From an uncultured Gammaproteobacteria bacterium (lineage in GTDB: Bacteria > Pseudomonadota > Gammaproteobacteria > Rariloculales > Rariloculaceae): a DNA stretch of 20,707 nt. The notes beneath the pieces were generated by a model. It was not told the origin of the DNA. It was given only the letters and a program-made list of their open reading frames with translations, and made no database searches. The translations under genes were made by a program, and so were the position numbers. Of the stretch, positions 1,100 to 20,264 are shown piece after piece (the first letter of the stretch is position 1; each line of letters opens with the position of its first letter). The stretch lies in the NCBI GenBank assembly GCA_946887385.1, contig CAMPKU010000048.1:1-20707 (forward strand), in the 5' to 3' direction.

Positions 1100-1960
1100 A
1101 TGGACGATCGGCACGAGACCCGCAACGACGATGAAAACGGCCTCGTCGAGCAACTCGCCGAAGAAATACGCCGGCGCCGCGTGATTTTATTCGCGGGCGC
1201 CGGCCTGTCGGCCGAGCTCGGCTTGCCATCCTGGGAAGCGTTCATCGGCCGACTCGGACCCGATCTCGGCTTCGATCCCGAAGCGTTTCTCAGCCTGAGT
1301 ACCGACTTCCGCTCGCTCGCCGAATACTATCGGTTGAAGAAAGGGTCGATCGACGGCTTGCGCGAACGGATGGCACGCGACTGGGCCGTGCCGGACGACA
1401 CTCTCGCGGCGTCCGACGCACATCGCCTCATCGTTCGGCTCGGTTTTCCGCTGATCTATACGACGAATTACGACGCGTTGCTGGAGCGGGCATTCAAGCT
1501 GCACGGCGTGGCGGTCAACAAGGCCACGACAGCGAAGGACATCGCGAGCCTCGACCCGAATCTCACGACGATCGTGAAATTCCACGGCGACCTCGAGGAA
1601 GGCGGCTCGCTCGTGCTTACGGAAACCGACTACTTTCGCCGGTTGGCGTTCCAGGATCCGCTCGACATTCAGCTCATGGCGGATGCGCTGGGGCGCGGCG
1701 TGCTGTTCCTCGGCTACAGCGTATCGGACGTGAACTTGCGCCTGCTGCTATTCCGGTTGCGCGAGATCTGGCTCGAATCCGGGCAGAGCGAATCGCGACC
1801 ACGATCGTACATCGTGATGACGCGGCCGGATCCCATACAGGAACGCATCCTCGACTCGTTGGGCGTGACGCCGTTGATCGGCTCCCGCGGCAACGCGAAC
1901 GGCGAGGCTGCCGCGCTGCTCACGTTCCTAAAGCGCCTCGCAGCGCTGGTCCGGCTATAG
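1100..1960 (+). CDS. SIR2-like domain protein (predicted NAD-hydrolysing enzyme)
   Basis: A 286-residue protein that is almost entirely one SIR2-like (SIR2_2 type) Rossmann domain. Numbered from the ATG at 1100, the NAD-binding GAGLS motif is at 33-37, TTNYD at 121-125, FHGD at 161-164 and GYSVSD at 205-210. The Asn of TTNYD (N123) and the His of FHGD (H162) correspond to the catalytic pair of SIR2 NADases such as those in Thoeris ThsA and DSR proteins, so the site looks intact. No DNA-binding, SLOG, TM or STAND domain is attached. The frame also opens at a TTG at 1073; neither start has a good Shine-Dalgarno and I prefer the ATG. It lies 67 bases upstream of a small basic-protein gene on the same strand. 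It could be an anti-phage NADase or a housekeeping SIR2; family assignment is firm, role is not. Confidence 0.85.
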   Translation: MDDRHETRNDDENGLVEQLAEEIRRRRVILFAGAGLSAELGLPSWEAFIGRLGPDLGFDPEAFLSLSTDFRSLAEYYRLKKGSIDGLRERMARDWAVPDDTLAASDAHRLIVRLGFPLIYTTNYDALLERAFKLHGVAVNKATTAKDIASLDPNLTTIVKFHGDLEEGGSLVLTETDYFRRLAFQDPLDIQLMADALGRGVLFLGYSVSDVNLRLLLFRLREIWLESGQSESRPRSYIVMTRPDPIQERILDSLGVTPLIGSRGNANGEAAALLTFLKRLAALVRL

Positions 1961-2728: not shown

Positions 2729-3658
2729 GTGGAACTCAGGCATCTACGCTACTTCGTTGCCGTCGCCGAAGAGCTCAGCTTTACACGCGCGGCGGCCCGG
2801 CTGCGCACCGCGCAGCCGTCTCTGAGCCAGCAGATCCGTCAGCTGGAAAAATCCGTGGGCGTGAAACTGCTCGACCGCAGCCGGCAGCACGTTGCGCTAA
2901 CGCATGCAGGACGCATCTTTTTGCAGCAAGCGAAGGATATCCTCGCACGCGTGGAGCACGCGGGGCGGCTCGCGAAGCGGGCTGCCGATGGGCGCGCGGG
3001 CGAGCTGTCGGTCGGTACTTTTCCATCGGCCGACGTGCGCATCCTGCCCGCGCTGCGGCCGCTCCTGGCGCAGCACCTGCCGGACTTGCGCCTGATCCTG
3101 CACAGCAAATACGCCGTGGACCCCATCGCGGGTCTTCAGTCGGGATCCCTCGACGTGGCTTTCGTGCGCGGCCCGCTCGAGGGTGATGGTCTCGACGCCG
3201 TGGAGTTGCTGCGCGAGCAGCTCGTCATCGTGCTGCCTTCTCATCATGCGCTCGCGCGTCGCAAAGCGATTCCGGTGAACAGCCTCGACGATCTGCCATG
3301 CATCACGATGGAGCGCCGGTTGTCGCCGCCGCTGCACGATGCCGCGGCGAATCTGTATCGCGCAGCGAAAATTCGGATGCATGCCGTCTCCAGCGCCGAT
3401 AACGTGCTGGGCCACCTCAAGCTGGTGCAGGAGGGGCTGGGCTTCGCCTTGCTGCCGGATTCCATCAGCGCGTTGCTGCCCCCCGGCGTCACTTTTCGGC
3501 CGCTCGACTGCGACCCCGTGCCGACCGTATCGCTGCTGGTCGCCTGGAAAGCCGGCAACGGCTCGAGACTCGTGCGCGAGCTCGTCGACCTGGCGAGCCG
3601 CTGCGGCAGCACATTGAAAGACGCACCACGTCTAACGCGCAAGGCGAAGAAGTCTTAG
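2729..3658 (+). CDS. LysR-type transcriptional regulator
   Basis: A 309-residue protein with the classical LysR organisation. An N-terminal winged helix-turn-helix occupies residues about 1-60 (MELRHLRYFVAVAEELSFTR followed by AAARLRTAQPSLSQQIRQLE). A linker helix to about 90 leads into a two-lobed periplasmic-binding-like effector domain. The start is a GTG at 2729, chosen because it gives the canonical MELRHLRYF beginning; no strong Shine-Dalgarno is visible. The sequence style resembles the BenM/CatM/HcaR branch that senses aromatic or organic acids; that is inference from the N-terminus only. It is followed after 40 bases, on the same strand, by the CoA-transferase gene. It is therefore the natural candidate regulator of the 3699-10419 series and could be transcribed with it. 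Divergent spacing to the 2604 gene leaves room for an autoregulatory site, but I could not identify a convincing one. Confidence 0.93.
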   Translation: MELRHLRYFVAVAEELSFTRAAARLRTAQPSLSQQIRQLEKSVGVKLLDRSRQHVALTHAGRIFLQQAKDILARVEHAGRLAKRAADGRAGELSVGTFPSADVRILPALRPLLAQHLPDLRLILHSKYAVDPIAGLQSGSLDVAFVRGPLEGDGLDAVELLREQLVIVLPSHHALARRKAIPVNSLDDLPCITMERRLSPPLHDAAANLYRAAKIRMHAVSSADNVLGHLKLVQEGLGFALLPDSISALLPPGVTFRPLDCDPVPTVSLLVAWKAGNGSRLVRELVDLASRCGSTLKDAPRLTRKAKKS

Positions 3659-3698: not shown

Positions 3699-4961
3699 AT
3701 GAACAACACAGCCGAAGCCGACACCGCAGCCGGACCGTTGTCCGGACTCACGGTGCTCGACCTGACGCTGGCGTTGGCAGGGCCGTTCGCTACCTTTCTT
3801 CTGGCGGGGCTCGGCGCCCGCGTCATCAAGATCGAGAACCCGGCCGCTCCCGATCACTGCCGCGAGAACGCGCCGTTCATCGGGCGAAACGGCGTAACGC
3901 TCGGCCGTTCGGCGCCGGATGACGTCTCTGCCGCAGCATTGAACCGCTTGCGCGGCAAGTATGCGGTTACGCTGAACTTGAAACAGCCGGGGTCGGTGGA
4001 AGTCTTCGCAGACCTGGTGCGGCAAGCGGATGTCGTCGTGGAGAACTTCGCACCGGGTACGCTCGAGCGGCTTGGCGTCGGTTACGAGTTCGCGCGCGAG
4101 CGCAATCCGCGCATCGTCTATTGCTCGATATCCGGATATGGCGCCGATCACTCGACGACGGGCTCGGGCAAAGCCATGGACAGCATCGTTCAGGCGTTGA
4201 GCGGACTGATGATGACCTCGGGCGCGCCCGACGATCCGCCGGTCCGTGTGGGTGTGCCGTTCGCCGATCTCTCGGCACCGGTTTTTGCCGTCGTCGGCAT
4301 TCTTGCGGCGCTTCGTCAACGCGATGTTACCGGTGCTGGTCGGCACGTCGACGTCTCGATGCTCGGCGTGTTGACATCGCTCGTGGCGGCGGAGCCGTTC
4401 GACTTGCTCGAAACGTGCGGCGTACCGCAGCGCACGGGGCGCATGGTGCCGCGACTCACGCCGTTTGGTGTTTACGAGTCGGCTGACGGCTATCTCGCGA
4501 TCTGCGCGCCGACGGACCAGTTCGCGCGCGGTGTGTTCCTGGCCATCGGCCGCCCCGAGCTCGAGAACGATCCGCGCTTTGCGACGCGCGACGCGCGCGT
4601 GGCCAACAAGGAGGCCATCAACGGCGAGATCGAGACGTTCACGCGCAGCCGGCCGACGGCAGAGCTCGTGCCGCTGTTCGAGCAGCACGGCGTCCCCGCG
4701 GCACCGGTCCGCACGCCGGCCGATGCTGTCCGCGATCCGCACGTGCTGGCGCGCGGCGAGACTGTGGCGCTCGAGCATCCGGTGCTCGGGCGCGTTGCAG
4801 ATTTGATCGGCCCGGGTGTGCCGATTCGTTTCTCGGGTACCCCATCCGGCCAGGCGCGACCCGCGCCGGGCGTCGGCCAAGACAACGCGCTCGTGTACGG
4901 AAACTGGCTCGGCTACGCCCCCGACACCCTCGAGCGGCTGCGCGCCGCCGGAAACATCTGA
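3699..4961 (+). CDS. Class III (CaiB/BaiF family) CoA-transferase
   Basis: A 420-residue cytoplasmic enzyme of the usual family length that should move CoA between an acyl-CoA donor and a carboxylic acid. Family signatures are in order: GLTVLDLT near residue 16, LAGLGARVIKIENP at 35-48, DVVVENFAPGTLERLG at 111-125, RNPRIVYCSISGYG at 135-148, and QALSGLM at 165-171. The stretch VGVPFADLSAP follows, in which Asp190 aligns with the catalytic aspartate of formyl-CoA transferase. The start ATG has only a weak ribosome binding site. The first dehydratase subunit begins 8 bases after its stop. FldA, the CoA-transferase for phenyllactate in clostridia, belongs to this family and also sits beside dehydratase genes, so a 2-hydroxy acid or aryl/acyl carboxylate substrate is plausible. 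The actual substrate cannot be read from the sequence. Confidence 0.93.
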   Translation: MNNTAEADTAAGPLSGLTVLDLTLALAGPFATFLLAGLGARVIKIENPAAPDHCRENAPFIGRNGVTLGRSAPDDVSAAALNRLRGKYAVTLNLKQPGSVEVFADLVRQADVVVENFAPGTLERLGVGYEFARERNPRIVYCSISGYGADHSTTGSGKAMDSIVQALSGLMMTSGAPDDPPVRVGVPFADLSAPVFAVVGILAALRQRDVTGAGRHVDVSMLGVLTSLVAAEPFDLLETCGVPQRTGRMVPRLTPFGVYESADGYLAICAPTDQFARGVFLAIGRPELENDPRFATRDARVANKEAINGEIETFTRSRPTAELVPLFEQHGVPAAPVRTPADAVRDPHVLARGETVALEHPVLGRVADLIGPGVPIRFSGTPSGQARPAPGVGQDNALVYGNWLGYAPDTLERLRAAGNI

Positions 4962-4969
4962 GGCGCACC

Positions 4970-6112
4970 ATGGGCGCGAGCGTCATCGATGAGCTGCGCG
5001 CTGCATTCGAAGAGCCGTTTTCGGCGCTCGGCCGCGATCCGGCACGAGACCGCGAAACGGTCGTCGCATCGTGGCCGTCGGTTCCCGTCGAGCTCGTGCG
5101 CACGGCAGGATTTTCGCCGGTCTTCGCTCGCGGCAGCAGCGCACCGACGCCGGCCGCGGACCGCGTGCTCGAGCCCAACCTTTTTCCGAACCGGCTGCGG
5201 CAGCTCGTCGAAGCCGCGTTAGCCGAGCGCCTAGCCCATGTTGCCGCCATCGTGCTGCCGCGCAGCTCGGACCCCGACTACAAGTGCTTTCTGTATCTGC
5301 GCGAGCTTAAGCGCCGCGGCATTGCGGCTGCACTGCCGCCCGTGTTGCTGTTCGATGTGTTGCACTCGGACACTCCGGAAGCGCACGCGTATAACGCCGA
5401 CCGAACGCGCGACCTGTCGGCCCGCCTCGCCCATCTCGCAGGTCGGCAACATCGAGCCGACGACCTTCGCGGTGCAATCGTAAGCGCCAATCGCGCGCGC
5501 GCCGCGGCACGGCGCCTTCAAGCGCTACGCACCGAGACCCCGCGCCTGGCCGGCGCTGACGCGCTACCGCTGCTCGGCGCCTTCTGGCAGCTTGAGCCCG
5601 AGCGTTATGCCTCGCTCGCGAATGCCGCAGCAGACTCGTTGGCCTCGCGAACGCCATTGGAAGGACCGCGCGTGCTCGTGGCCGGGGTGCCCGTCGATGC
5701 GCCCGCCATGCATGCAGCCATCGAAGCCGAGGGCGGCGTCGTGGTGGCCGAGGTGAGCCCGTTTGGCCGCTGCGGCACCACAACGGACGTTGAGCTTACG
5801 AACGACGCAGTCGCTGCGCTCGCAAGTCATTACGCGCGCGAGTCGATCGACGCGCGCCTGCCGGTCGGGGCGTTGATGCGCAAGCTCGGCGACGCGCTGG
5901 GCGCGGCCGAAGCCGTCGTGCTCTCGCAGCCGCAGGACGATGCGAGCTTCGGCTGGGACTATCCGCGCGTGCGCGAGCTGCTCGCGCGGCACGCGATTCC
6001 GCACATCGTGCTCGCCGGCGAGCCCGCGATCGGCGCAACGGCCGTGGAGCGCGAACGCATCCGCTCGCTGCTCGCTGGCGCACGCACTCGGCCGGAGGTC
6101 CGCTGTGGCTGA
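4970..6112 (+). CDS. 2-hydroxyacyl-CoA dehydratase/benzoyl-CoA reductase-family subunit, Fe-S cysteines missing
   Basis: A 380-residue protein with the fold signatures of the HgdB/BcrB/FldB family. These are VPVELVRTAGFSPVFARG (38-55), a dinucleotide-like VLPRSSDPDYKCFLYLREL (95-113), the long central helical region, then GPRVLVAGVPVDAP (232-245) and YPRVRELLARHAIPHIVL (331-348). Active members bind a [4Fe-4S] cluster through three cysteines. Here the usual CD pair reads S100-D101, the first ligand region (EPNLFPNRL) has no Cys, and the third region (LSQPQDD, about 318-324) has none. The only cysteines are C106, C268 and C379, none at the expected positions by my reading. It starts 8 bases after the CoA-transferase and overlaps the next gene. 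It may be a structural or regulatory partner that has lost its cluster. The family call is good; the ligand mapping is by eye. Confidence 0.82.
   Translation: MGASVIDELRAAFEEPFSALGRDPARDRETVVASWPSVPVELVRTAGFSPVFARGSSAPTPAADRVLEPNLFPNRLRQLVEAALAERLAHVAAIVLPRSSDPDYKCFLYLRELKRRGIAAALPPVLLFDVLHSDTPEAHAYNADRTRDLSARLAHLAGRQHRADDLRGAIVSANRARAAARRLQALRTETPRLAGADALPLLGAFWQLEPERYASLANAAADSLASRTPLEGPRVLVAGVPVDAPAMHAAIEAEGGVVVAEVSPFGRCGTTTDVELTNDAVAALASHYARESIDARLPVGALMRKLGDALGAAEAVVLSQPQDDASFGWDYPRVRELLARHAIPHIVLAGEPAIGATAVERERIRSLLAGARTRPEVRCG
6094..6098 (+). promoter_or_regulatory. Shine-Dalgarno that fixes the GTG start at 6105
   Basis: GGAGG with a 6-base spacer to GTG at 6105. It lies inside the 3' end of the upstream subunit gene, pointing to translational coupling and ruling against the longer frame opening at 5940. 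Confidence 0.7.
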
Positions 6113-7370
6113 GAAGCAGCTGCAGTCGACACTCGCGGCGGCTGCGTTCCAGAAGCAGTGGTTCGGCGATTTGCGGCAACGCGTCTTCAACGAGCGCCGG
6201 CCGTACGCGCTCATCCAAGCGGACGTGCCGTTCGAGCTGTTCGATCTATTGGAGATCCCCGCCGTCAGCAATCAGTGGTGGTCGTCGCTCGTGGCCGCGA
6301 AGCGCCAAGCGCCGGCGTTTCTCGCTGCGATGACGGCCGACGGCATTCCCGATCAACTGTGCCGTTACTGCAGCCTCGGGCTCGCGACCACGCGCTACGC
6401 TAAAGCCGGCGAAGCGCCGTGGGGCGGGTTGCCGGCGCCGCGCCTGCTGTGTGCGCGTTTGACCTGCGACTGTATCCACCGCGTGTTCTCGCTTTGGGCC
6501 GAGGCATTCGGCGCCGAGCTGTTCGAGATCGAGCACACGGGTGCGAGCGAGCTGCCGCCGCGCTGGTGGGAGCTCACGCGCCATCGCTGGCGCGAGCTCA
6601 TCGAGCCGCATCGGCTCGAGTTCGTAGCGACCGCGCTCGAGCGCCTCATCGAGCGCCTGGAATCGATTAGTGAGCAGCGCCTCGACCACGCGGAGCTGCG
6701 CGAACGCCTCGCCCGCGTGAATCGGCAAGAAGAGATTTTCGACGCGGCGCGGCAGCTGATCGCAGCAGCGCCTGCCACGCCCGTACGCATGACCGAGCAG
6801 ATCGCGAACGTGATGGCGACGCAGTGGGTGCGGGGAACCGACTGGGCAGTGGCGCACGCGCAGCACTTTTACGACGAGGTGCGAGCGCGCGTCGACGGCG
6901 GTGTAGCGGCGTGCGAAGGCGAGAGGCTGCGTCTCATGTGGGTGGGCGCGGGATTGTGGCACGACACGGATTTCTATACCGCCTTCGAAGAATCGCACGG
7001 CGCGGTATTCGTGTGGTCGATGTATCTCGCGTTCGGTCCCGACGGCTACATTCGTTACGGGCTCGAGGATCCGCTCGCCGCGCTCGCGAGCCGGACCGCA
7101 AGCTTCAACGAGTTCCTGCACAACCCGCCGTGGGCCGCGGAGTGGACCGTGGCGCAGGCGCTCGAGCATCGCATCGACGCGGCGCTCGTGCTGCATCCGC
7201 AGAGCATGAAGCCCTCGGCAACCGGCCGCCTCTTCATCGAGCGTGCGCTCGAGGAAGCCGGCATTCCCGCGCTGGCGGTGGAGGCCGACGTGGTCGATGC
7301 GCGAGCTTGGGATGCTGCCGCAGCCCGTAAAGCCGTCGCGTCGTTTCTCGACGAGCGCGTGCAGCGATGA
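6105..7370 (+). CDS. Second 2-hydroxyacyl-CoA dehydratase/benzoyl-CoA reductase-family subunit
   Basis: A 421-residue protein. The frame opens much further upstream (5940), but the GTG at 6105 is chosen. It has GGAGG at 6094-6098 with a 6-base spacer, and it overlaps the end of the previous gene by 8 bases, as expected for a coupled subunit pair. Family features are GIPDQLCRYCSLGLA (80-94), CDCIHRVFSLWAEAFG (121-136), a long helical middle, and a C-terminal MKPSATGRLFIERALEEAGI (368-387) ending in a VEADVVDAR acid-rich loop. C86 and C121 fit the first two cluster ligands, but the third position reads M368 where active enzymes have Cys. Unusual extra cysteines C89 and C123 sit beside the retained ones. 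Together with its partner it should form the heterodimer that reduces or dehydrates a CoA thioester. No gene for the HgdC/FldI-type ATPase activator is present in the window. Confidence 0.85.
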   Translation: MAEKQLQSTLAAAAFQKQWFGDLRQRVFNERRPYALIQADVPFELFDLLEIPAVSNQWWSSLVAAKRQAPAFLAAMTADGIPDQLCRYCSLGLATTRYAKAGEAPWGGLPAPRLLCARLTCDCIHRVFSLWAEAFGAELFEIEHTGASELPPRWWELTRHRWRELIEPHRLEFVATALERLIERLESISEQRLDHAELRERLARVNRQEEIFDAARQLIAAAPATPVRMTEQIANVMATQWVRGTDWAVAHAQHFYDEVRARVDGGVAACEGERLRLMWVGAGLWHDTDFYTAFEESHGAVFVWSMYLAFGPDGYIRYGLEDPLAALASRTASFNEFLHNPPWAAEWTVAQALEHRIDAALVLHPQSMKPSATGRLFIERALEEAGIPALAVEADVVDARAWDAAAARKAVASFLDERVQR

Positions 7371-8575
7371 GAACGGCAACCACGAACGTTTCGCAGACGC
7401 TGTGGCTGCTGCCCTTCGGCGTCACGCTGGTTGCAATGTTCTCGCTGCAGCTGTCGAACCTTGGGTTTTCGCCGCTGCTGCCGTCGATCCAGGCGGACGT
7501 GGGCATGAGCTTCACGCAGCTCGGGTTCTTTACGGGTCTCTACGGCTTGCTCGCGCTGCTGCTCAGCGTGCCGGCCGGCTTCGCCGCCAAGCGTTTCGGC
7601 GAGAAGCGCGTGCTTGCGGCCGGGCTCGTTGGCGTCGCAATCGGCAGCGTGTTGCTCGCGCGCGCGTGGAATTTCGAGTCGGCCGTCGCCTTCCGCGGCC
7701 TCACGGTCTTCGGTTATCGCTTCGCTTTCGTCAGTGTGCTCATCGCAGTGGCGATGACTGCGCCGCCGCAGCTGCGCGGCCGAACCATGGGCGTGCTCGG
7801 CGCAACCTCGGCAATGGCTTCGGTCGTCGGCGCGCCGCTCGGCGGAGCCCTCGTCGGCGAGCTCGGTTGGCGCACGGCGATCTTGGGATATGCGGCCATG
7901 GCGTTGCTCGGCGCCGCCGTGTTCTTTCTATTTTATCGCGCCACGGCGGAGCCCGATTCGGCGAAGCCGCCAGCGGCCGTGCCCGCCGACGGCGCGCGAT
8001 ATACGAGCGCCTTTCGCACACCCGTAGTCTGGCTGCTTGCGCTCGTCGTCGGCCTCGGCGGCTTCGGCCAGTTCACCGTCACGTATTTCGTGCCGAGCGT
8101 GGCCGACTCCGTCTATGGTCTCAACGCTGCTGCAGCCGGTGTCATCATCAGCACCGGCTACATCGCTGCCATCGTGCTGAACCTGCTCATCGGCATACTC
8201 GCCGATCGCATGAACAAGCTCGTCATGCTCGGCGGAATGGTGGCCGTGCTGGCCGTAGCCTCTGCGTCGTTGGCGGTGGAGCACGAGCTGTTGTTTCGTG
8301 TGGCCACGGCCGTCGTCATCGGCGTCGGCTTCTCCGCGGCGAATCAGCTCTACGGGCTCGCAGGCAGCTTGATGCCGCGCCGAGAAACAGGCAACGCGAT
8401 GGGCATCGTGAGCCTCGGCGCGGGACTGTTCGGCTATTTCGGGCCGCAGATGCTCGGCATCCTGCGCGACACGACGGGCTCGTTTGCCGCGGGCTTCTAC
8501 ATGGTGGCCGTCGCGGATCTCTTGACGCTCGGATTGATCGTGCTGCTCTATCGCTTGACTCGCCGCCCAGCGTAA
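7367..8575 (+). CDS. MFS transporter (12 TM)
   Basis: A 402-residue major facilitator protein. About twelve hydrophobic segments can be followed, with a short cytoplasmic loop after TM2 (AAKRFGEKRVLAAGL, about 73-87) matching the MFS motif A position, a central loop near residues 190-210, and the equivalent ILADRMNKLVMLGG loop in the second half. The start codon overlaps the stop of the preceding dehydratase subunit (ATGA). The gene is thus part of the same transcription unit and most likely imports the substrate of the CoA-transferase/dehydratase pathway or exports a product. The closest feel is the organic-anion/CynX-like branch of MFS, but substrate cannot be deduced. The next gene follows after 13 bases with a strong ribosome binding site embedded in this gene's stop codon. 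Confidence 0.92.
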   Translation: MRTATTNVSQTLWLLPFGVTLVAMFSLQLSNLGFSPLLPSIQADVGMSFTQLGFFTGLYGLLALLLSVPAGFAAKRFGEKRVLAAGLVGVAIGSVLLARAWNFESAVAFRGLTVFGYRFAFVSVLIAVAMTAPPQLRGRTMGVLGATSAMASVVGAPLGGALVGELGWRTAILGYAAMALLGAAVFFLFYRATAEPDSAKPPAAVPADGARYTSAFRTPVVWLLALVVGLGGFGQFTVTYFVPSVADSVYGLNAAAAGVIISTGYIAAIVLNLLIGILADRMNKLVMLGGMVAVLAVASASLAVEHELLFRVATAVVIGVGFSAANQLYGLAGSLMPRRETGNAMGIVSLGAGLFGYFGPQMLGILRDTTGSFAAGFYMVAVADLLTLGLIVLLYRLTRRPA

Positions 8576-9441: not shown

Positions 9442-10419
9442 ATGAAATTGCCAAATCGATTCGGAAGCATCGCTCAAGGCGTGCTCGTGGTGGGATACGC
9501 GGCCGGGATCGCGGCGACGACAGCGGCACAGACAGAGCCCGCGCGCGCCATCACGAAGCTCACGGTCGTCGACGTGCAGCAAACCGGCACCGCGCCCACG
9601 GGCCCATTCCCGGTCGTCGTCGAGCACGATCCCGGACTCGCCACTCACACCATTTACCGCCCTCGAGCGCTCTCGATGGACGAGCACCCGGTGCTCGTCT
9701 GGGGCGAAGGCGGCTGCGCGAACAACGGGCTCATGTTCCCCGAGTACTTGAGCGAAATCGCATCCCACGGCTTCGTCGTCATCGCCGACGGCCCGCCGCT
9801 CGCGCGCCCGGCCGGCGGGCCTGGTGCGGGCGGCGGCGGGCCTCCGCCCGGTGGCGCCGCCGGTCCGCCCGCGGACCGCGGGAGCATGGTGAACGGCACG
9901 GATCTTGTCGCAGCCATGAACTGGCTCGAGGCGGAAAGCAAGCGCCGCAACAGCCGCTTCTACGGAAAGGTGAACGTGGAGCGCATCGCTGCCATGGGCA
10001 TGTCCTGCGGCGGCTTGATGTCGTACGGCGCTTCGAACGATCCGCGCGTGGCGACGGTGGGGATTTGGAACAGCGGCCTATTCGAAGACGCGCGCAACGC
10101 GGCGATCTACGCCGGGATCCACGGCTCGGTGATCATCGTGACCGGCGGCGAATCCGACATCGCCTATGCCAACGGTAAGCGCGACTTCGAAGTCATGCCG
10201 GCCCGGATTCCGGTCTTCTACGGCGTGCACCCGTCGGTGGGTCATGGAGGCACCTACAACCAAGACAACGGCGGGCCTTTCGGCGTCGTGGCCGTCGCGT
10301 GGCTGAAATGGCAGCTACAAGGCGACACGAGCGCAGCGGGCCGCGGTTACTTCGTGGGCAACGATTGCGGCATCTGCAAAGACGCCGGCTGGCAAATCGA
10401 TGCACGCGCATTGCCTTGA
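9442..10419 (+). CDS. Exported alpha/beta hydrolase with Gly/Pro-rich insert
   Basis: A 325-residue protein. The frame opens further upstream, but the ATG at 9442 has a gggga ribosome-binding stretch just before it and begins a good signal peptide (hydrophobic about 9-28, cleavage near TAAQT). Triad candidates are visible: S188 in GMSCGG, D239 in GGESD and H268 in VGHGGTY. The early strand HPVLVWGEGGCANN carries the oxyanion region. Residues 124-145 are an extremely Gly/Pro/Ala-rich loop lacking charged residues, placed between core strands where a lid would be. Three cysteines occur late or near the ends (C92, C309, C312) and could form a disulphide in the periplasm. It is the last gene of the plus-strand series, ending 11 bases before the convergent monooxygenase gene. 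Substrate unknown; polyester, lactone or aromatic-ester hydrolysis are possibilities. Confidence 0.85.
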   Translation: MKLPNRFGSIAQGVLVVGYAAGIAATTAAQTEPARAITKLTVVDVQQTGTAPTGPFPVVVEHDPGLATHTIYRPRALSMDEHPVLVWGEGGCANNGLMFPEYLSEIASHGFVVIADGPPLARPAGGPGAGGGGPPPGGAAGPPADRGSMVNGTDLVAAMNWLEAESKRRNSRFYGKVNVERIAAMGMSCGGLMSYGASNDPRVATVGIWNSGLFEDARNAAIYAGIHGSVIIVTGGESDIAYANGKRDFEVMPARIPVFYGVHPSVGHGGTYNQDNGGPFGVVAVAWLKWQLQGDTSAAGRGYFVGNDCGICKDAGWQIDARALP

Positions 10420-12602: not shown

Positions 12603-12983
12603 TCAGTTATTGGTTCCGGGCGGCACGCCGATCTCGGTTCCGTCGTCGCGGAACGCGCGCGTGATGCGGATCAGATACGTGCCATCGAGCGAAGGCATCC
12701 CTTCGAGCTTCACTTTGTCGCCGGGCTTGAAGCTCGTCTGGCTCCAGCCGCGCCGGCGCAAGATCGACGGCGAGGTGGTCTCGGCCGTCCACTCCTGGCT
12801 CTCGCCGTCCTCGCTCACGACCTCGAGCTTGAGGATTGCGTGCGGGTTGCTGAACCGAAACTCGGTGACCGTGCCGCTGATGTTCGTGCGCTCATCGACC
12901 TTGTAAAAAACCGGTGCCGAATGGTGCGCGTAGGCAGCGCCGGCCGCAACGAGCAGCACGCCGAAAACACCCGAACGAAGCAT
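12603..12983 (-). CDS. DUF6152-family periplasmic protein
   Basis: A 126-residue exported protein. A short signal peptide (MLRSGVFGVLLVAAGAAYA) ends right before the HHS typical of this family, followed by the conserved layout: GTVTEFRFSNPHAILKL, a W-x-x-E strand (QEWTAET), a SILRRRGW segment, then FKPGDKVKLEGMPSLDGTYL. Two starts are possible. The ATG at 12983 gives a standard signal peptide with an AAGGGTGA-type ribosome binding site about 9 bases upstream. An in-frame ATG at 13034 overlaps the stop of the upstream hydrolase (ATGA) but would add 17 residues before the signal. I choose 12983. Function of DUF6152 is unknown; the fold looks like a small beta-barrel. It sits between an exported beta-lactamase-fold hydrolase and another exported protein. 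Confidence 0.85.
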   Translation of the reverse strand: MLRSGVFGVLLVAAGAAYAHHSAPVFYKVDERTNISGTVTEFRFSNPHAILKLEVVSEDGESQEWTAETTSPSILRRRGWSQTSFKPGDKVKLEGMPSLDGTYLIRITRAFRDDGTEIGVPPGTNN

Positions 12984-13030
12984 CACGTTGTCACCCTTAC
13001 CTGCCCACGGCTTCGCATTCAATATACCAG

Positions 13031-14293
13031 TCATGGCGTATCGACCAACGCTTGGTACACGAGCGTTTCCACTTTCTGCAGCAGATCGGCGTCGTTCGGC
13101 AGTACCTGGCCCATGATGACCATGACCATACCCTCCGCGGGGTTCACGCTGAAGGTGGTGGTCGCCGCGCCGCCCCAGCCGAAAGTGCCGACCGACCCCA
13201 GCCGCCCGAGCGCCGCCGCATCGATCGTCACGGAAACACCGAGCCCGTAGCCTGTCGCGGCCGGCCCGCTCGCCGCGATGGAAGGAATGTTCTGCGGCAG
13301 GTGGTTCTGCGCCATGAGCTCTACCGTCTTGCGGCCGAGAATCCGCACGCCGTCCAACTCGCCGCCGTTCAACAGCATCCGCGCGAAGCGCAGGTAGTCC
13401 GGCGCGGAGCCCGACAGACTCAGAGTGCCGAAGGCGTGCTCCGTGAAGCGCGCGTAGCGATCGGCGCTGTCGGGCACGAGCTTGCCCTCGGCGTTGCGGT
13501 CGTACACGGTGGCGAAATCGCGCTTCATGGCCGGCGGCACGCCGAATGCCGTATGGCGCATACCGAGCGGCTCGAGAACGGCGGTGCGCACGTAATCGGC
13601 GTAGGGCATGCCGGCGAAGTACTCGACGAGATACGCCTGCACGTCGTGACCCAGTCCGTACACCCACTGCTCGCCGGGCGAGTAGCGCAGCGGCACCGTC
13701 GCGAGGCGATCGATCTCCTGGCGTAGCGAATCGAGCTCGAACATGCCGAGCCCGGCCTCCCGGTACAGCACGTCGACTTCGGAGTTGCCCAATCCACTCG
13801 ACAAGCCCAGTGTGTGGCGGAACGCGTCTTGGATCGTGGGCTTGCGCTTCGGCGCTTCGAGAACCGGCCGGCCGTTCGAGTCCTTACCCGCATACACCTT
13901 CAAGTCGGCGAACTGCGGGATGTACTTGTCGAGGGGATCGGTGAGCTGGAACAGACCGCGCTCGTACAGCGTCAACAGCGCCACGCTCGTGATCGGCTTG
14001 GTCATCGAATAGAGCCGGAACATTGCGTCGGCCCGCATCGGCTGGCGTGACTCGAGGTCCATATAGCCGTAGTTGCGTTGGATCACTTCGCCATGACGCG
14101 CCAACGCTACGACCATGCCGCTCAGGCGACCGGCGGCAATTTCGCGCTCGAGCAACTCATCGAGCCGCTCCAGACGCTGTGGTGAAAGGCCGGCCGCCTC
14201 GAGCGCTTCAGCAGAGACGGGCGCCGGCGCATGCCAAAGCGCCGTGGCGCAGACGAGGTAGGTCACGAGGCGGAGGACGCTCTTTTCGTGCAT
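13031..14293 (-). CDS. Exported serine hydrolase of the beta-lactamase/family VIII esterase fold
   Basis: A 420-residue exported enzyme. The frame opens upstream, but ATG 14293 has GAAGGG at a good distance and starts a signal peptide (hydrophobic 8-25, cleavage near PVSA). Catalytic motifs of class C beta-lactamases and family VIII esterases are in order: S96-M-T-K99 (SxxK) in RLYSMTKPITSVAL, Y212 in WVYGLGHDV at the Tyr position, and WGGAATTTF (373-381) in place of KTG. The replacement of KTG by WGG is typical of esterases and peptidases of this fold rather than true beta-lactamases, so I favour an esterase or D-aminopeptidase-like activity. It is the first gene of the minus-strand series (hydrolase, DUF6152 protein, periplasmic protein, monooxygenase) and is divergent from the SnoaL-like gene across 185 bases. 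Confidence 0.92.
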   Translation of the reverse strand: MHEKSVLRLVTYLVCATALWHAPAPVSAEALEAAGLSPQRLERLDELLEREIAAGRLSGMVVALARHGEVIQRNYGYMDLESRQPMRADAMFRLYSMTKPITSVALLTLYERGLFQLTDPLDKYIPQFADLKVYAGKDSNGRPVLEAPKRKPTIQDAFRHTLGLSSGLGNSEVDVLYREAGLGMFELDSLRQEIDRLATVPLRYSPGEQWVYGLGHDVQAYLVEYFAGMPYADYVRTAVLEPLGMRHTAFGVPPAMKRDFATVYDRNAEGKLVPDSADRYARFTEHAFGTLSLSGSAPDYLRFARMLLNGGELDGVRILGRKTVELMAQNHLPQNIPSIAASGPAATGYGLGVSVTIDAAALGRLGSVGTFGWGGAATTTFSVNPAEGMVMVIMGQVLPNDADLLQKVETLVYQALVDTP

Positions 14294-14952: not shown

Positions 14953-16428
14953 TTAGGCCGCGCACCCTAGATCGAGCCGCTCGACTCTTCCCGCGCTCGA
15001 GTACTCGAGGCAATGCTCGCACGACTCAAGATTTACCGTGAGTCGCGCGATTTCCTCGCCGAGCCGCCAAGTTAGCTCGAGCGTGTCATCCGGCGATTCG
15101 CCGATCTCGAACGTGCCGCCAAAAGCGGCATGCTCGTTGCGCAACCGAATGAGATCGATCAGGCGCTGCACGCAGGGCCGTGCCAGCGCTTCGTCGATCT
15201 CGGCTCGCGTGTACGAGTGCCGGTTGATGTCGCGGCCCACTCCGGTTCGAGCGAGCAGCGCCATGTCGTTCCTGCCGGCGAGCAGACCTACGTAGTACAC
15301 CTGCGGAATTCCCGGGACGAAAAACTGGATGGCACGGGCGAGCAGATACTTGCCATCGTCTGCGCCGAGAGCGTCATAAAAAGTGCAGTTCACTTGGTAG
15401 AGATCGAGATTCGAAGCAGCCGCGCCCGTCGCGCGCGCGCGTTCGCCGCGGCTGTTCGCGTGGATGTCGGCGACGAGACGGTCGAGCTCCTCTTCTGCAA
15501 GGAGCCCGGGGCGCCCGTTCTCGCCGCGCTCGGCCGCGATGTCGATCACACCGATGCCGTCATGGGTATCGAGCACGGTGAGTGCGTTGCGCGGGCGCAG
15601 CGCAATCCAACGCTTCAGGGCGCGCGCCGTGCCTCGGAAGAAGGCGTGCAGCACCAGCGGCGGCAACGCAAAGTCGTACACCCAATCCACGTGGCGGGCG
15701 ATCTCGATCTGCTGCTCGTAGTGCGAATGCACTTCCACGAGCACCTCGAGCCCGTGGCGCCGCGCACGAGCGGCCAACGCGCCGATGAACTCCAAGGTCT
15801 CGGGCAGCATGAAGCAGCTCTGCCCGGCCTTCTTGATCGCGTAACCGATCGCATCGAGCCGGATCATCTTGATGCCGTGCGCGCCGAACGTTTGCAGGAT
15901 GTCCTCCAGGTACTCGCGGCCGCAGGGATGCGTAACGTCGATGTCGATCTGCTCGGACGTGAACGTGGTCCAGAATAGTCGGCGAGTGCCATCCGCGAGC
16001 GTAAGCGCGGTGAACGGCAAGCCCGGCCGCGGCCGATAGATTGCGAGCAGATCGCGCTCGGCAGCGCCTTGCGGAAATACGCCGTCCAGCGTGAGAAACA
16101 ATCCTGCGAACCGGCTGTGAGCGCCGCGCTCGGCGAAGTCCAGGAACTGCTGAGAGCGGCTCGATATGTGGTTCACGATCACGTCGGCCATCAAGTCGAT
16201 TTCCCGCGCGAGCGCCATGACGTCGTGCCAATCGCCCAAGCGCGCGTCGACGCGAGTGTGGTCGATCGGGTCGAAGCCCGCATCGGCGCCGTCGATGCGC
16301 TCGAAGAACGGCAGCAGGTGCACGCCGCCGAACAGCCCCGAGAGAGGTCCCGCGAGCAGCTCGCGCAAACCCGCGAACGTGCCTCCGACGCGGTCCACGT
16401 AGGCGATCAGTTGAACGCGGTTCTTCAC
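14953..16428 (-). CDS. Sucrose phosphorylase (GH13 subfamily 18)
   Basis: A 491-residue cytoplasmic enzyme that should convert sucrose plus phosphate to glucose-1-phosphate and fructose. It aligns by eye almost without gaps to Bifidobacterium adolescentis sucrose phosphorylase (504 residues). The nucleophile D192 (MIRLDAIGY), acid/base E232 (VLVEVHSHY) and stabiliser D290 (DTHDGIG) fall at the same numbers. The substrate-loop residues in IYRPRPGLPF and LDLYQVN (D342, Y344, Q345) are kept; these argue for sucrose over sucrose-6'-phosphate or glucosylglycerate. The frame opens far upstream, but the GTG at 16428 gives the canonical start VKNRVQLIAYVDR (initiator GTG read as Met) and overlaps the transporter stop as GTGA, so the genes are co-translated. 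An odd CEHC pair occurs at 470-473. Confidence in family is very high, in exact substrate high. Confidence 0.95.
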   Translation of the reverse strand: MKNRVQLIAYVDRVGGTFAGLRELLAGPLSGLFGGVHLLPFFERIDGADAGFDPIDHTRVDARLGDWHDVMALAREIDLMADVIVNHISSRSQQFLDFAERGAHSRFAGLFLTLDGVFPQGAAERDLLAIYRPRPGLPFTALTLADGTRRLFWTTFTSEQIDIDVTHPCGREYLEDILQTFGAHGIKMIRLDAIGYAIKKAGQSCFMLPETLEFIGALAARARRHGLEVLVEVHSHYEQQIEIARHVDWVYDFALPPLVLHAFFRGTARALKRWIALRPRNALTVLDTHDGIGVIDIAAERGENGRPGLLAEEELDRLVADIHANSRGERARATGAAASNLDLYQVNCTFYDALGADDGKYLLARAIQFFVPGIPQVYYVGLLAGRNDMALLARTGVGRDINRHSYTRAEIDEALARPCVQRLIDLIRLRNEHAAFGGTFEIGESPDDTLELTWRLGEEIARLTVNLESCEHCLEYSSAGRVERLDLGCAA

Positions 16429-17702
16429 TTGGCGGGAGTCGGCGCGGGCACGGGCGTCACCACCGGCGCCGATGCGTCGCGGCCGTAGTCGGCGCGGTCG
16501 GACGCCTGCAACCGGCGCGCGAACGGATCGAGCAGCCAGTTGCCCGCAAGCCCCGCGAGCATCAGAAAGGCGAATACCGTTGCAAGCACGAAGCCGGCTT
16601 CGGTCGTGCCGTAGGCGTCGCTGATCGCGCCCATTGCGAGCGGCCCGAGCGCCGCCGCCGCTGCCGTGAAGAACAAGATAACGCCGGCGGCCGCGCCATG
16701 CTGCGACTTTGGAAAGCAGCTGATGCCCTTGGAGTTCAGCGTCGGGTAGACGATGGACATGAACAGCCCGGAAAGCGGGAGTAGCCACGCTGCGGCGTCG
16801 ACTCCGAAGGACAGCGAGCCGAGGAAGCACAGAAAAATCGCCGCGCCGACGATTGCAAGCGCGGCCGTCCAGGACACGTGCGCCAAGAGCCACGCTCCTA
16901 AAAATCGGCCGGCGGCGCGCAGAACGAAGAACAGCGTGAGGGCATAGGCGGGCAGCCAGGCGAACGCGCCGCCGTAGTTGAGCAGATACGTCGGCATCCA
17001 GACGTAGACCGCTACCTCGACAGCAACGTAGAACATCACGAGAGCCGACACGCCGAGTGCGAGGGGATCCCGCAGCACACTCACCATCGCACGCAGCGTG
17101 GGCCGCTCTGCCGTGGTTTTTATCGTATCGGGATAACGCACTCGCCAAGCCATCGCCACGAGCAATACGCAAATCGCCGCGGCTGCTACATAGAGCCATT
17201 TCCAGGAAAGACCTCGAGCGATCAACGTTGCGACGACGGCCGGGCCCACGATGGCGCCGACGGCGAAGAAGCCCTCGATCGTGTTCATGAATCGCGTATG
17301 CGACATCGTGGACGCGGAGACGTCGCCGACGAGGGCCAGCGCGCCGATCTTGAAAACGCTGATGCCGAGGCCGGATAGTGCCAAGAGCATCACGAAGACG
17401 CCGAACCGGTCGCTAACTGCAAACACGAGCGACGCGGCTCCGTACAAGGAGAGGCCGACGATGAGCGTACGCTTGCGCCCCGTCCGATCGGCGAGAAACC
17501 CGAGCAGCAGCGCGCCCGCCGCTATGCCGGCCATCGTCGCGTATTGAAAAGCGCTGGCTGCCGTCATGCTGAGGGAGAACTCCGCGATGACGGCTGGAAT
17601 TACACTGCCGACGGCATCGGTCGTCATCGCGAAGGTGAAGAACATCAAACAGACGAGCGCTCGGATCATCCGCTCGTCATGGCCCTCATCGCTTGCCGGC
17701 AT
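16425..17702 (-). CDS. MFS transporter, probable sugar (sucrose) carrier
   Basis: A 425-residue major facilitator protein with about twelve TM segments. The GFLADRTGRKRTLIVGLSLY loop after TM2 is a textbook MFS motif A, and a long central loop (RYPDTIKTTAERPTL, about 189-203) separates the halves. The C-terminus is a Pro/Ala-rich tail. The half-way segment VWMPTYLLNYGGAF resembles fucose-permease-like (FHS) carriers. The coding end overlaps the sucrose phosphorylase start by GTGA, so the carrier probably supplies its sugar without phosphorylation, as phosphorolysis requires free sucrose. The start at ATG 17702 has no ribosome binding site of its own; a strong one 28 bases upstream serves a 5-codon mini-ORF. 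An in-frame stop closes the frame above, so the only other start would be the internal Met12 (17669). Confidence 0.9.
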   Translation of the reverse strand: MPASDEGHDERMIRALVCLMFFTFAMTTDAVGSVIPAVIAEFSLSMTAASAFQYATMAGIAAGALLLGFLADRTGRKRTLIVGLSLYGAASLVFAVSDRFGVFVMLLALSGLGISVFKIGALALVGDVSASTMSHTRFMNTIEGFFAVGAIVGPAVVATLIARGLSWKWLYVAAAAICVLLVAMAWRVRYPDTIKTTAERPTLRAMVSVLRDPLALGVSALVMFYVAVEVAVYVWMPTYLLNYGGAFAWLPAYALTLFFVLRAAGRFLGAWLLAHVSWTAALAIVGAAIFLCFLGSLSFGVDAAAWLLPLSGLFMSIVYPTLNSKGISCFPKSQHGAAAGVILFFTAAAAALGPLAMGAISDAYGTTEAGFVLATVFAFLMLAGLAGNWLLDPFARRLQASDRADYGRDASAPVVTPVPAPTPAK

Positions 17703-19217: not shown

Positions 19218-20264
19218 CTAAGGGCCGCTCACGCTCTCGTAGAACGAGAGCGCGACACCGCCCTGCCCCATGCTCGGATCCGAGCTTAGATACAAGTTCG
19301 CGTTGAGATAAGCATAAGGACCGTCGGCGCGCGTTTCGAACGTCGGCACGAGCGAGCCGAACGAGCCGCCGTTGCGCACGATGACGATTTCGCCGTCACT
19401 CGTCTGCCACAAGTAATGCGCATCGATCGTCGCCGGCGGCGAAAGCAGCTGATAGTCGGCGCCGCCCATGAGTACCTGGCCCGCAATACGCCCGCTCAAG
19501 ATACCGCCCGTGATCGGAATGATATTGCGCATGCCGCGCTTGCTCTCGCCCACTCTCTGCGACGGGCTGAGCGTGACGTTTTCCGTGATCAGAAGGTCGC
19601 CTTGCCGCTCGCTCGCATCTTTGCTGCGATAACCCCACGGCTGCGCCGCAACATCGGCCGGCTTGGCGATCGAGACGCTGCCGTCGTTGCCGGAATCGGT
19701 CCTGACGTTCGACACGTCGTAGACTCGCAGCTGCATGACCTTAGCGGCGGTGTTCAGCTCCCGCCGGGCGACGAACTGCCCGGAGTTCAACCACGCGTGC
19801 ATGCTGTCGTTCGGCGCCTCGAAATCCATGACGACTCTGACATCCGCGGCGTTCGGCCCGATACCAGCGTTGCGGGCATAGATGAAACTTCCGTCGGACG
19901 CCCGGAGCACCAGAGCCTGCTCGATCTCGATGGTTTCATTGGCCAGCGTGAGCTCGAAGTCGAGAGCACCGGGCGCAACCGTGCCCGACAGTCTCGGTCC
20001 CTCGACGGAACCTTCGAGCCCAACGGCTACGCGTCGCAATCCGTACTGCGTTTGGCCGACATCCACGGTGCGCTCGAGCGGAATTTCGATCTCGAAAAGC
20101 AGGCGCCCGCCTTCCGGATTCGGAATGCCCTGCGGCATGCCGCAGTCCCACGTGGCATGGGGGATCAGCGTTTGCCGCGAGGTTTGCGCCTGCACACACG
20201 AGGAGGCGAGCGTGAGCGTCGCCGAAGCTCCCAACACCGACAGAAACGTGCTCGCGGTTTTCAT
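19218..20264 (-). CDS. Exported protein with two DUF3237 domains
   Basis: A 348-residue protein. The frame extends upstream over the sulfatase end, but ATG 20264 starts a proper signal peptide (MKTASTFLSVLGASATLTLA, cleavage near VQAQ at 24-27). Two domains of the DUF3237 type occur in tandem. The first is at about 53-184 (LSGTVAPGALDFEL, then SDGSFIYARNAG, MHAWLNSGQFV and MQLRVYDV). The second is at about 224-344 (GILSGRIAGQVLMGGADYQL, then SDGEIVIVRNGG, YAYLNANLYLS and VALSFYES). Most proteins of the family carry a single copy of about 150 residues. The function of the family is unknown; the shape is a small beta-barrel. The second copy retains the PGGADwq-like turn (MGGADYQ), whereas in the first it has become APGALDFE, so the copies have diverged. 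It follows the sulfatase by 7 bases on the same strand. Confidence 0.83.
   Translation of the reverse strand: MKTASTFLSVLGASATLTLASSCVQAQTSRQTLIPHATWDCGMPQGIPNPEGGRLLFEIEIPLERTVDVGQTQYGLRRVAVGLEGSVEGPRLSGTVAPGALDFELTLANETIEIEQALVLRASDGSFIYARNAGIGPNAADVRVVMDFEAPNDSMHAWLNSGQFVARRELNTAAKVMQLRVYDVSNVRTDSGNDGSVSIAKPADVAAQPWGYRSKDASERQGDLLITENVTLSPSQRVGESKRGMRNIIPITGGILSGRIAGQVLMGGADYQLLSPPATIDAHYLWQTSDGEIVIVRNGGSFGSLVPTFETRADGPYAYLNANLYLSSDPSMGQGGVALSFYESVSGP
19232..19252. terminator. Perfect 8-bp stem-loop near the convergent stops (weak terminator candidate)
   Basis: CGCTCTCG at 19232-19239 and CGAGAGCG at 19245-19252 form a perfect 8-bp stem with a 5-base loop, 20 bases past the ceramidase stop and inside the last codons of the opposing DUF3237 gene. 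There is no T-run on either side, so it is not a standard rho-independent terminator. It could still pause transcription or protect a 3' end. Confidence 0.3.

What the first reader, a model, noticed from the sequence alone, without database searches (positions are those of the whole stretch)
3699..7370. fldABC-like CoA-transferase plus dehydratase gene trio without a visible activator
The sequence shows a CaiB/BaiF CoA-transferase directly followed by two overlapping subunits of the 2-hydroxyacyl-CoA dehydratase/benzoyl-CoA reductase family. Gene order matches the phenyllactate system (FldA transferase, FldB/FldC dehydratase) of anaerobic clostridia. That system needs an ATP-driven one-electron activator (FldI/HgdC), normally encoded within or beside the cluster; none is in this window. 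The neighbours (flavin monooxygenase, secreted hydrolases, sulfatase) suggest an aerobic or facultative host. A radical dehydratase in such a context would be unusual, and a variant working without the activator would be new.
Basis: partly seen in the sequence, partly recalled or inferred. Interest (0 to 1): 0.75.

Follow-up and report, generated by a model that had tools for sequence, protein, structure and literature searches.

The report
Rewired dehydratase-like pair lacking its activator
Bacteria that appear to breathe oxygen carry a conserved gene set that looks like an oxygen-sensitive radical enzyme but has lost the parts that make the radical, so it probably does a different, still unknown reaction on coenzyme-A-bound acids.

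Summary
The trio is real: a family III CoA-transferase (3699-4961), two HGD-D subunits (4970-6112; 6105-7370, GTG start), then an overlapping MFS gene. It is not simply FldABC minus its activator. In the alpha-like subunit B, two canonical cluster cysteines remain (C86, C121), two are new (C89, C123), the third canonical one is lost (M368) and Gln57 replaces the acid/base Glu; the four Cys and Gln57 occur in 241 of 241 aligned B proteins. In the beta-like subunit C no Cys column is shared by more than 8 of 23 sequences. Of 25 relatives' genomes, the 9 with further HGD-D genes all have TIGR00241 activases above cut-off; of the 16 others, 14 have none and 2 only sub-cut-off fusions. All 25 match COX1. 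Named sphingomonads carry it on plasmids beside transporters, CoA-transferases and hydrolases. Cys-less relatives exist. Best reading: a non-radical acyl-CoA enzyme on a dismantled radical-dehydratase scaffold, in a module degrading ester-derived acids. Substrate, metal and reaction are unproven; structure prediction never ran.

The parts
2729..3658 (+). LysR-type regulator; best NCBIfam match HcaR (265 bits, below its cut-off 356)
   Evidence: 86% identical copy in the same place in L001
3699..4961 (+). Family III (CaiB/BaiF) CoA-transferase
   Evidence: PF02515 372 bits; best solved-structure match YfdE; beside C in L001-L003, L007, L008, L013 on the same strand and in L004, L005, L010, L011 divergently
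4970..6112 (+). HGD-D subunit C (beta-like): no clade-wide cysteine
   Evidence: PF06050 111 bits; profile matches BzdN, HadC, MbdN; 23 sequences aligned; dN/dS 0.34 to L001
6105..7370 (+). HGD-D subunit B (alpha-like), GTG start, 421 aa
   Evidence: PF06050 149 bits; profile matches MbdO, BzdO, HadB; dN/dS 0.10 to L001
6273..6275 (+). codon Q57 of B, aligned with a Glu of MbdO and HadB
6360..6371 (+). codons C86-R-Y-C89: canonical ligand 1 plus a new cysteine
6465..6473 (+). codons C121-D-C123: canonical ligand 2 plus a new cysteine
6960..6962 (+). codon H286 of B (WHD motif), absent in the Cys-less relatives
7206..7208 (+). codon M368 of B, at the place of the lost third ligand cysteine
7367..8575 (+). 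MFS transporter, overlaps subunit B by 4 bases
   Evidence: PF07690 183 bits; after B on the same strand in L001-L004, L008, L011, L012 and L006; opposite strand in L007, upstream in L013, not seen in L005 and L010
8589..9425 (+). putative esterase; relatives near the cassette in clade 1
   Evidence: PF00756 41 bits; family F7
9442..10419 (+). alpha/beta-hydrolase-like protein (PETase-like 22.4 bits, below cut-off 28); relatives also in clade 2 loci
   Evidence: family F4

Best explanation
The locus is a small catabolic module: hydrolases (probably exported) free a carboxylic acid from an ester, a carboxylate transporter (MFS here, TRAP in relatives) brings it in, the family III CoA-transferase makes its CoA thioester, and the B-C heterodimer acts on that thioester. 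B-C descends from the ATP-dependent 2-hydroxyacyl-CoA dehydratase / benzoyl-CoA reductase fold, but its radical machinery is dismantled: no activase, no beta cluster, an alpha site rebuilt as four cysteines (CRYC...CDC), acid/base Glu changed to Gln. It therefore most likely does polar, oxygen-tolerant acyl-CoA chemistry (hydro-lyase, isomerase or C-C lyase), the four-Cys site holding either a fully Cys-ligated [4Fe-4S] cluster or zinc. Shown: gene content, residue changes, co-occurrence in relatives. Inferred: B-C pairing, thioester substrate, export of the hydrolases, metal, non-radical reaction, pathway order.
For: C86, C89, C121, C123 and Q57 in 241 of 241 aligned B proteins. Of 104 distinct profile hits in the loci held, 57 cover all positions read: 26 have Q57, all four Cys, H286 and no Cys at 368; 29 have E57, 24 of them with Cys368; 2 are Cys-less; no hit, partly covered ones included, has Q57 with Cys368 or E57 with all four Cys. 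Position 368 aligns with BzdO Cys380 and the SC of MbdO/HadB, Q57 with a Glu of MbdO/HadB (read by eye); E there in 9 of 10 canonical sequences. BzdO ligands Cys95/128/380 and Glu65 are from PMC11971306 (passages). No Cys column in more than 8 of 23 C sequences. Activase over cut-off in 9 of 9 genomes with further HGD-D genes and in 0 of 16 without. G438, a single 3.22 Mb contig, has no TIGR00241 and no PF01869 at E 1e-3. PF00115 in 25 of 25. CoA-transferase, transporter and hydrolase genes recur beside the pair. Purifying selection.
Against: No assay and no structure. The 25 genomes are related, mostly drafts, completeness not given; G003 and G008 hold long activase-like fusions below cut-off. 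An unknown electron donor cannot be excluded. The four cysteines are not shown to meet in space. Cys-less relatives (L139, L140, L066, L148) show that the site can be lost, so its catalytic role is doubtful. Not all hosts need be aerobes: 9 of 25 also have canonical-type HGD-D genes and activases, L005, L010 and L011 have glycyl-radical-enzyme-family genes nearby, and the only PF00115 match of G004 (long frame, modest score) may be a nitric oxide reductase.
Confidence: 0.6

Rival explanations
1. It is still a 2-hydroxyacyl-CoA dehydratase (for example of an aryl-lactoyl-CoA to a cinnamoyl-CoA) that works in air without an Archerase, fed by another reductant or by none.
For: The gene content mirrors FldABC. 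In Croceicoccus marinus a gene labelled p-hydroxycinnamoyl-CoA hydratase/lyase (Pfam: ECH_1) and an aldehyde dehydrogenase lie beside it; in G438 an aldehyde dehydrogenase and 4-hydroxybenzoate 3-monooxygenase (TIGR02360, 613 bits); in Novosphingobium ES2-1 a tannase/feruloyl esterase. The window's LysR matches HcaR best.
Against: The beta cluster and the three-Cys open-iron alpha site of the known mechanism (PMC11574389 section 6) are missing or replaced, and the acid/base Glu of BzdO (PMC11971306 passages) is Gln here. Phenylpropanoid-type neighbours were seen in 3 loci only.
Confidence: 0.22
2. B-C is not an enzyme of its own but a partner of the CoA-transferase (scaffold, redox or oxygen sensor), the four cysteines being a structural or sensing site.
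For: Cys-less relatives keep several of the same neighbours; C evolves fast (dN/dS 0.34).
Against: B is strongly conserved (dN/dS 0.10) with 101 near-invariant residues in 241 proteins, more than a scaffold usually needs.
Confidence: 0.12
3. An ordinary ATP-activated radical dehydratase whose activase lies elsewhere in the genome.
For: Clear HGD-D homology of both subunits; 9 of 25 carrier genomes have activases over cut-off; the window's own genome could not be searched.
Against: Those 9 are exactly the genomes with further HGD-D genes; 14 others have no match at all; ligand cysteines are lost.
Confidence: 0.04

Closest known systems
Class I benzoyl-CoA reductases BzdNO and MbdNO
   Same: same family and subunit pairing by profile: B matches MbdO/BzdO, C matches BzdN/MbdN
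   Different: no Cys at the third alpha ligand or at the beta ligand positions that aligned, Gln at the Glu place, no ATP-driven electron module in the window or in G001
2-hydroxyacyl-CoA dehydratases (HadBC; FldBC by analogy)
   Same: HGD-D pair next to a family III CoA-transferase; B matches HadB, C matches HadC
   Different: no activase in most carriers, cluster sites altered, oxidase-bearing hosts
Double-cubane cluster proteins (6ENO)
   Same: HGD-D domain; C has weak similarity
   Different: C has no clade-wide cysteine
CoA:oxalate, formyl- and succinyl-CoA:carboxylate CoA-transferases (YfdE and kin)
   Same: the 3699 gene covers the whole PF02515 model
   Different: far below the cut-off of every NCBIfam model it matched; substrate unknown

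Membership tests
ATP-dependent 2-hydroxyacyl-CoA dehydratase (component D + activase) | two homologous HGD-D subunits | tested here: met
   PF06050 in both; definition from PMC11574389 section 6
ATP-dependent 2-hydroxyacyl-CoA dehydratase (component D + activase) | three Cys ligands of the alpha [4Fe-4S] cluster with an open fourth iron | tested here: not met
   third ligand position is not Cys (mostly M in clade 1 and N or S in clade 2, T in Acidobacteria); two extra Cys
ATP-dependent 2-hydroxyacyl-CoA dehydratase (component D + activase) | three Cys ligands of the beta [4Fe-4S] cluster | tested here: not met
   no Cys column in more than 8 of 23 sequences; S100 where HadC has Cys and D324 where HadC and BzdN have Cys (read by eye)
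ATP-dependent 2-hydroxyacyl-CoA dehydratase (component D + activase) | cognate activase (TIGR00241) | tested here: not met
   in relatives: 0 of 16 over cut-off in genomes with only this type, 0 of 3 in G438, G632, G658. The window's genome is not held
ATP-dependent 2-hydroxyacyl-CoA dehydratase (component D + activase) | ketyl-radical dehydration of (R)-2-hydroxyacyl-CoA | not testable with these tools
   needs enzyme assay and EPR
Class I benzoyl-CoA reductase | equivalents of BzdO Cys95, Cys128, Cys380 and Glu65 | tested here: not met
   Cys95 and Cys128 places are Cys; Cys380 place is not. The Glu place is Gln by alignment to MbdO and HadB; BzdO itself did not align there
Class I benzoyl-CoA reductase | ATP-binding (PF01869) subunits in the cluster | tested here: not met
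   none among 20 window genes; none over cut-off in G001
Family III CoA-transferase | full-length CoA_transf_3 domain | tested here: met
   positions 1-366 of 366, 372 bits
FldABC phenyllactate system | orthology to FldA, FldB, FldC with the activator FldI | not tested
   no Fld sequence was compared; only the activator family was sought

The most novel reading that the evidence does not exclude
A widespread, oxygen-tolerant enzyme class built on the radical-dehydratase fold that handles 2-hydroxyacyl (perhaps aryl-lactoyl) CoA esters with a four-cysteine metal site, or in some members with no metal site at all, and without any ATP-driven activator.
Probability: 0.25. Interest if true: 0.9.

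Novelty: new variant of a known kind. Interest (0 to 1): 0.7.

Why it matters
Source databases name these genes benzoyl-CoA reductase or 2-hydroxyacyl-CoA dehydratase, implying anaerobic radical chemistry in bacteria that carry terminal-oxidase genes. If the radical parts are really gone, those names mislead, and the family offers a natural series (three-Cys canonical, four-Cys, Cys-less) for asking how a radical metalloenzyme is converted to another chemistry. Named sphingomonad strains carry it, so it can be tested.

Tried and rejected
Rejected: activator hidden elsewhere. PF01869 alone overcounts: the PF01869 proteins of G002, G224 and G632 lack the CxxG[ST]GxF motif that a regular expression found in 6 of 6 activase loci tried (L045, L046, L047, L051, L141, L142); the fused protein in L052 (G008) lacks it too; those of G003, G007 and others were not tried (the motif is recalled, from no call). 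So TIGR00241 was used. Rejected: DCCP-like role for C (no clade-wide cysteines). Rejected: decayed genes (dN/dS 0.10-0.34). Not settled: whether the Cys-less forms branch inside or beside clade 2 (ultrafast bootstrap 69 and 61; L148 was not in that tree).

Paper searches. Five gave no paper; in the listings of the others (one search listed 25 of 62,769) I saw no title about this clade. Rows left out of counts: 47 of 104 distinct hits did not cover all positions; two of the 29 E57 rows (L016, L133) have odd letters at the cysteine places and five (L020, L021, L039, L126, L130) read T at 368, perhaps misalignment. In one search L013 contains masked bases.

Full report
What is there. The window encodes, on the + strand, a LysR regulator (2729-3658), a family III CoA-transferase (3699-4961), HGD-D subunit C (4970-6112), HGD-D subunit B (6105-7370, GTG start) and an MFS transporter (7367-8575), then an esterase and an alpha/beta-hydrolase-like protein. 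Subunits B and C match the alpha-type (MbdO, BzdO, HadB) and beta-type (BzdN, HadC, MbdN) chains of solved structures respectively. The order is CoA-transferase, beta-like, alpha-like. None of the 20 genes called in the window is a PF01869 activator.

Conservation. CoA-transferase, C and B lie side by side in L001 (Gammaproteobacteria, 88% B identity) and in Acidobacteria loci at 62-66% B identity, with the CoA-transferase divergent in L004, L005, L010 and L011. L009 (60%) is titled Candidatus Methanoperedens, an unexpected place that may be a binning error; it was not followed up. A second clade at 42-46% identity typically has TRAP genes, C, a double CoA-transferase, B, DctP and another CoA-transferase, often with a PGA_cap (CapA-family) gene. 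Named carriers with B on a plasmid are Novosphingobium sp. EMRT-2, ES2-1, THN1 and PP1Y and two Croceicoccus marinus records (neighbourhoods of three, EMRT-2, ES2-1 and one Croceicoccus, were read); Sphingomonas sp. ASY06-1R has it too. In those three records C is labelled hypothetical protein; Pfam still finds HGD-D at 30 bits for EMRT-2.

How common. Strong matches: 14 of 296 genomes of G001's order (27 of 296 at E 1e-3), 4 of 398 Pseudomonadota (G001, G438, G632, G658; 7 of 398 at E 1e-3) and 6 of 396 Acidobacteriota (91 of 396 at E 1e-3, the rest weak). G001 and all six Acidobacteriota were already known, so the Acidobacteriota sample added no new carrier.

The radical machinery. PMC11574389 (section 6 read) defines these dehydratases by an alpha [4Fe-4S] cluster with three Cys and an open iron, a beta [4Fe-4S] cluster with three Cys, and an ATP-driven activase. 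PMC11971306 (passages) gives BzdO ligands Cys95, Cys128, Cys380 and the acid/base pair Glu65 and His131. In B the first two ligands are kept (C86, C121), the place of Cys380 (position 368) is not Cys, and two cysteines are new (C89, C123). The four Cys and Gln57 occur in 241 of 241 proteins: the window plus the 120 best hits of each of two searches, so the sample leans to close relatives. Of 57 distinct fully covered profile hits, 26 have Q57 with all four Cys, 29 have E57 and 2 are Cys-less; no hit has E57 with all four Cys or Q57 with Cys368. Five of the 29 read T at 368 and two have odd letters at the cysteine places, perhaps misalignment. Q57 aligns with a Glu of MbdO and HadB; BzdO itself did not align at that place. 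In C no Cys column is shared by more than 8 of 23 sequences; in the window's own close group C106 (119 of 121) and C268 (88 of 121) are common, but C106 is present in only 4 of the 23.

Activase. Among 25 genomes, TIGR00241 is over cut-off in G004, G005, G006, G009, G010, G011, G012, G221 and G274, exactly those with further HGD-D genes. G003 and G008 have only sub-cut-off fused proteins; the other 14 have none. These 14 include G226, which has the Cys-less form. One weak HGD-D piece of G130 on another contig was not examined; it is probably the C gene cut off by a contig end. Fisher tests give 5e-7 (over cut-off) and 3e-5 (any match), overstated because the genomes are related. G438 and G632 are each essentially one contig (3.22 and 4.05 Mb) and have no TIGR00241. 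G438 also has no PF01869; G632 has one weak PF01869 protein over cut-off (35.5 bits) without the activase cysteine motif. PF00115 (COX1) occurs in 25 of 25; the family also holds nitric oxide reductases (recalled), and the single match of G004 may be one.

Cys-less relatives. L139 (G632), L140 (G658, C and B fused), L066 (G226, fused) and L148 (Rhizobium sp. SSA_523 plasmid) lack all four cysteines and H286. They keep CoA-transferase genes in all four loci; L139 and the G226 locus keep TRAP genes, L140 keeps PGA_cap, a CocE-type hydrolase and hydrolase F4. His286 missing together with the cysteines suggests one functional unit. Their branching next to clade 2 is weakly supported.

Mechanism. 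With no beta cluster, no activase, no open-iron ligand set and no acid/base Glu, the known ketyl route looks unavailable. Strong constraint on B (dN/dS 0.10 against L001) says it has a function. I infer polar acyl-CoA chemistry. The neighbours (ester-hydrolase-type genes, TonB receptor, TRAP or MFS, CoA-transferases) suggest uptake and activation of an acid from an ester. Hydroxycinnamate- or 4-hydroxybenzoate-type genes next to it in three loci hint at phenylpropanoids, too few to claim. For contrast, an HGD-D pair outside this clade on a Rhizobium leguminosarum plasmid sits beside two genes annotated as activases.

Limits. No structure was predicted; the spatial meeting of the cysteines, the metal and the reaction are open. 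The window's genome is not held. That the clade is undescribed rests only on the listed searches of an open-licence library, of which I saw listings, one section of one paper and passages of another.

Noticed in passing
window 1100-1960 (+): SIR2-like protein (SIR2_2, 95 bits; PADLOC ThsA model, 111 bits); no partner gene was identified. Possibly a lone defence-type NADase.
   Followed up: partly
L139 8481-9716 (-), L140 8291-10675, L066, L148 13944-15248: Completely Cys-less versions of B, twice fused to C, with several of the same neighbours.
   Followed up: partly
L145 11036-11923, L146 11003-11887, L147 11015-11893: The C subunit is annotated as hypothetical protein in the plasmid records, so the pair looks like a single gene.
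   Followed up: yes
L149 7809-13237: Rhizobium leguminosarum plasmid: an HGD-D pair outside this clade with two annotated activases, an ABC substrate-binding protein and rhodanese-like genes nearby, in a bacterium usually regarded as aerobic (recalled).
   Followed up: no
L005 1394-3694 (-), L010 497-2863 (-), L011 13871-16312: Glycyl-radical (PFL-like) enzyme family near the cassette in three Acidobacteria (Pfam was run on L005 only).
   Followed up: no
L138 3048-4157 and other F5 genes: CapA/PGA_cap proteins recur with both clades; the L138 copy weakly matches the MslH peptide epimerase model (87 bits, cut-off 700).
   Followed up: no
window 19221-20264 (-); L146 21529-22083 (-): DUF3237 protein in the window; another DUF3237 gene lies between the hydroxycinnamoyl-CoA lyase and aldehyde dehydrogenase genes in Croceicoccus.
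   Followed up: no
window 14956-17702 (-): Alpha-amylase-family protein (weak, 33 bits) whose predicted start slightly overlaps the end of an MFS transporter gene, an unusual pairing.
   Followed up: no
window 12606-14293 (-): Beta-lactamase-fold (PF00144, 196 bits) protein followed without a gap by a DUF6152 protein.
   Followed up: no
L009: A relative at 60% identity in a contig binned as Candidatus Methanoperedens (archaeon); probably mis-binned or transferred.
   Followed up: no
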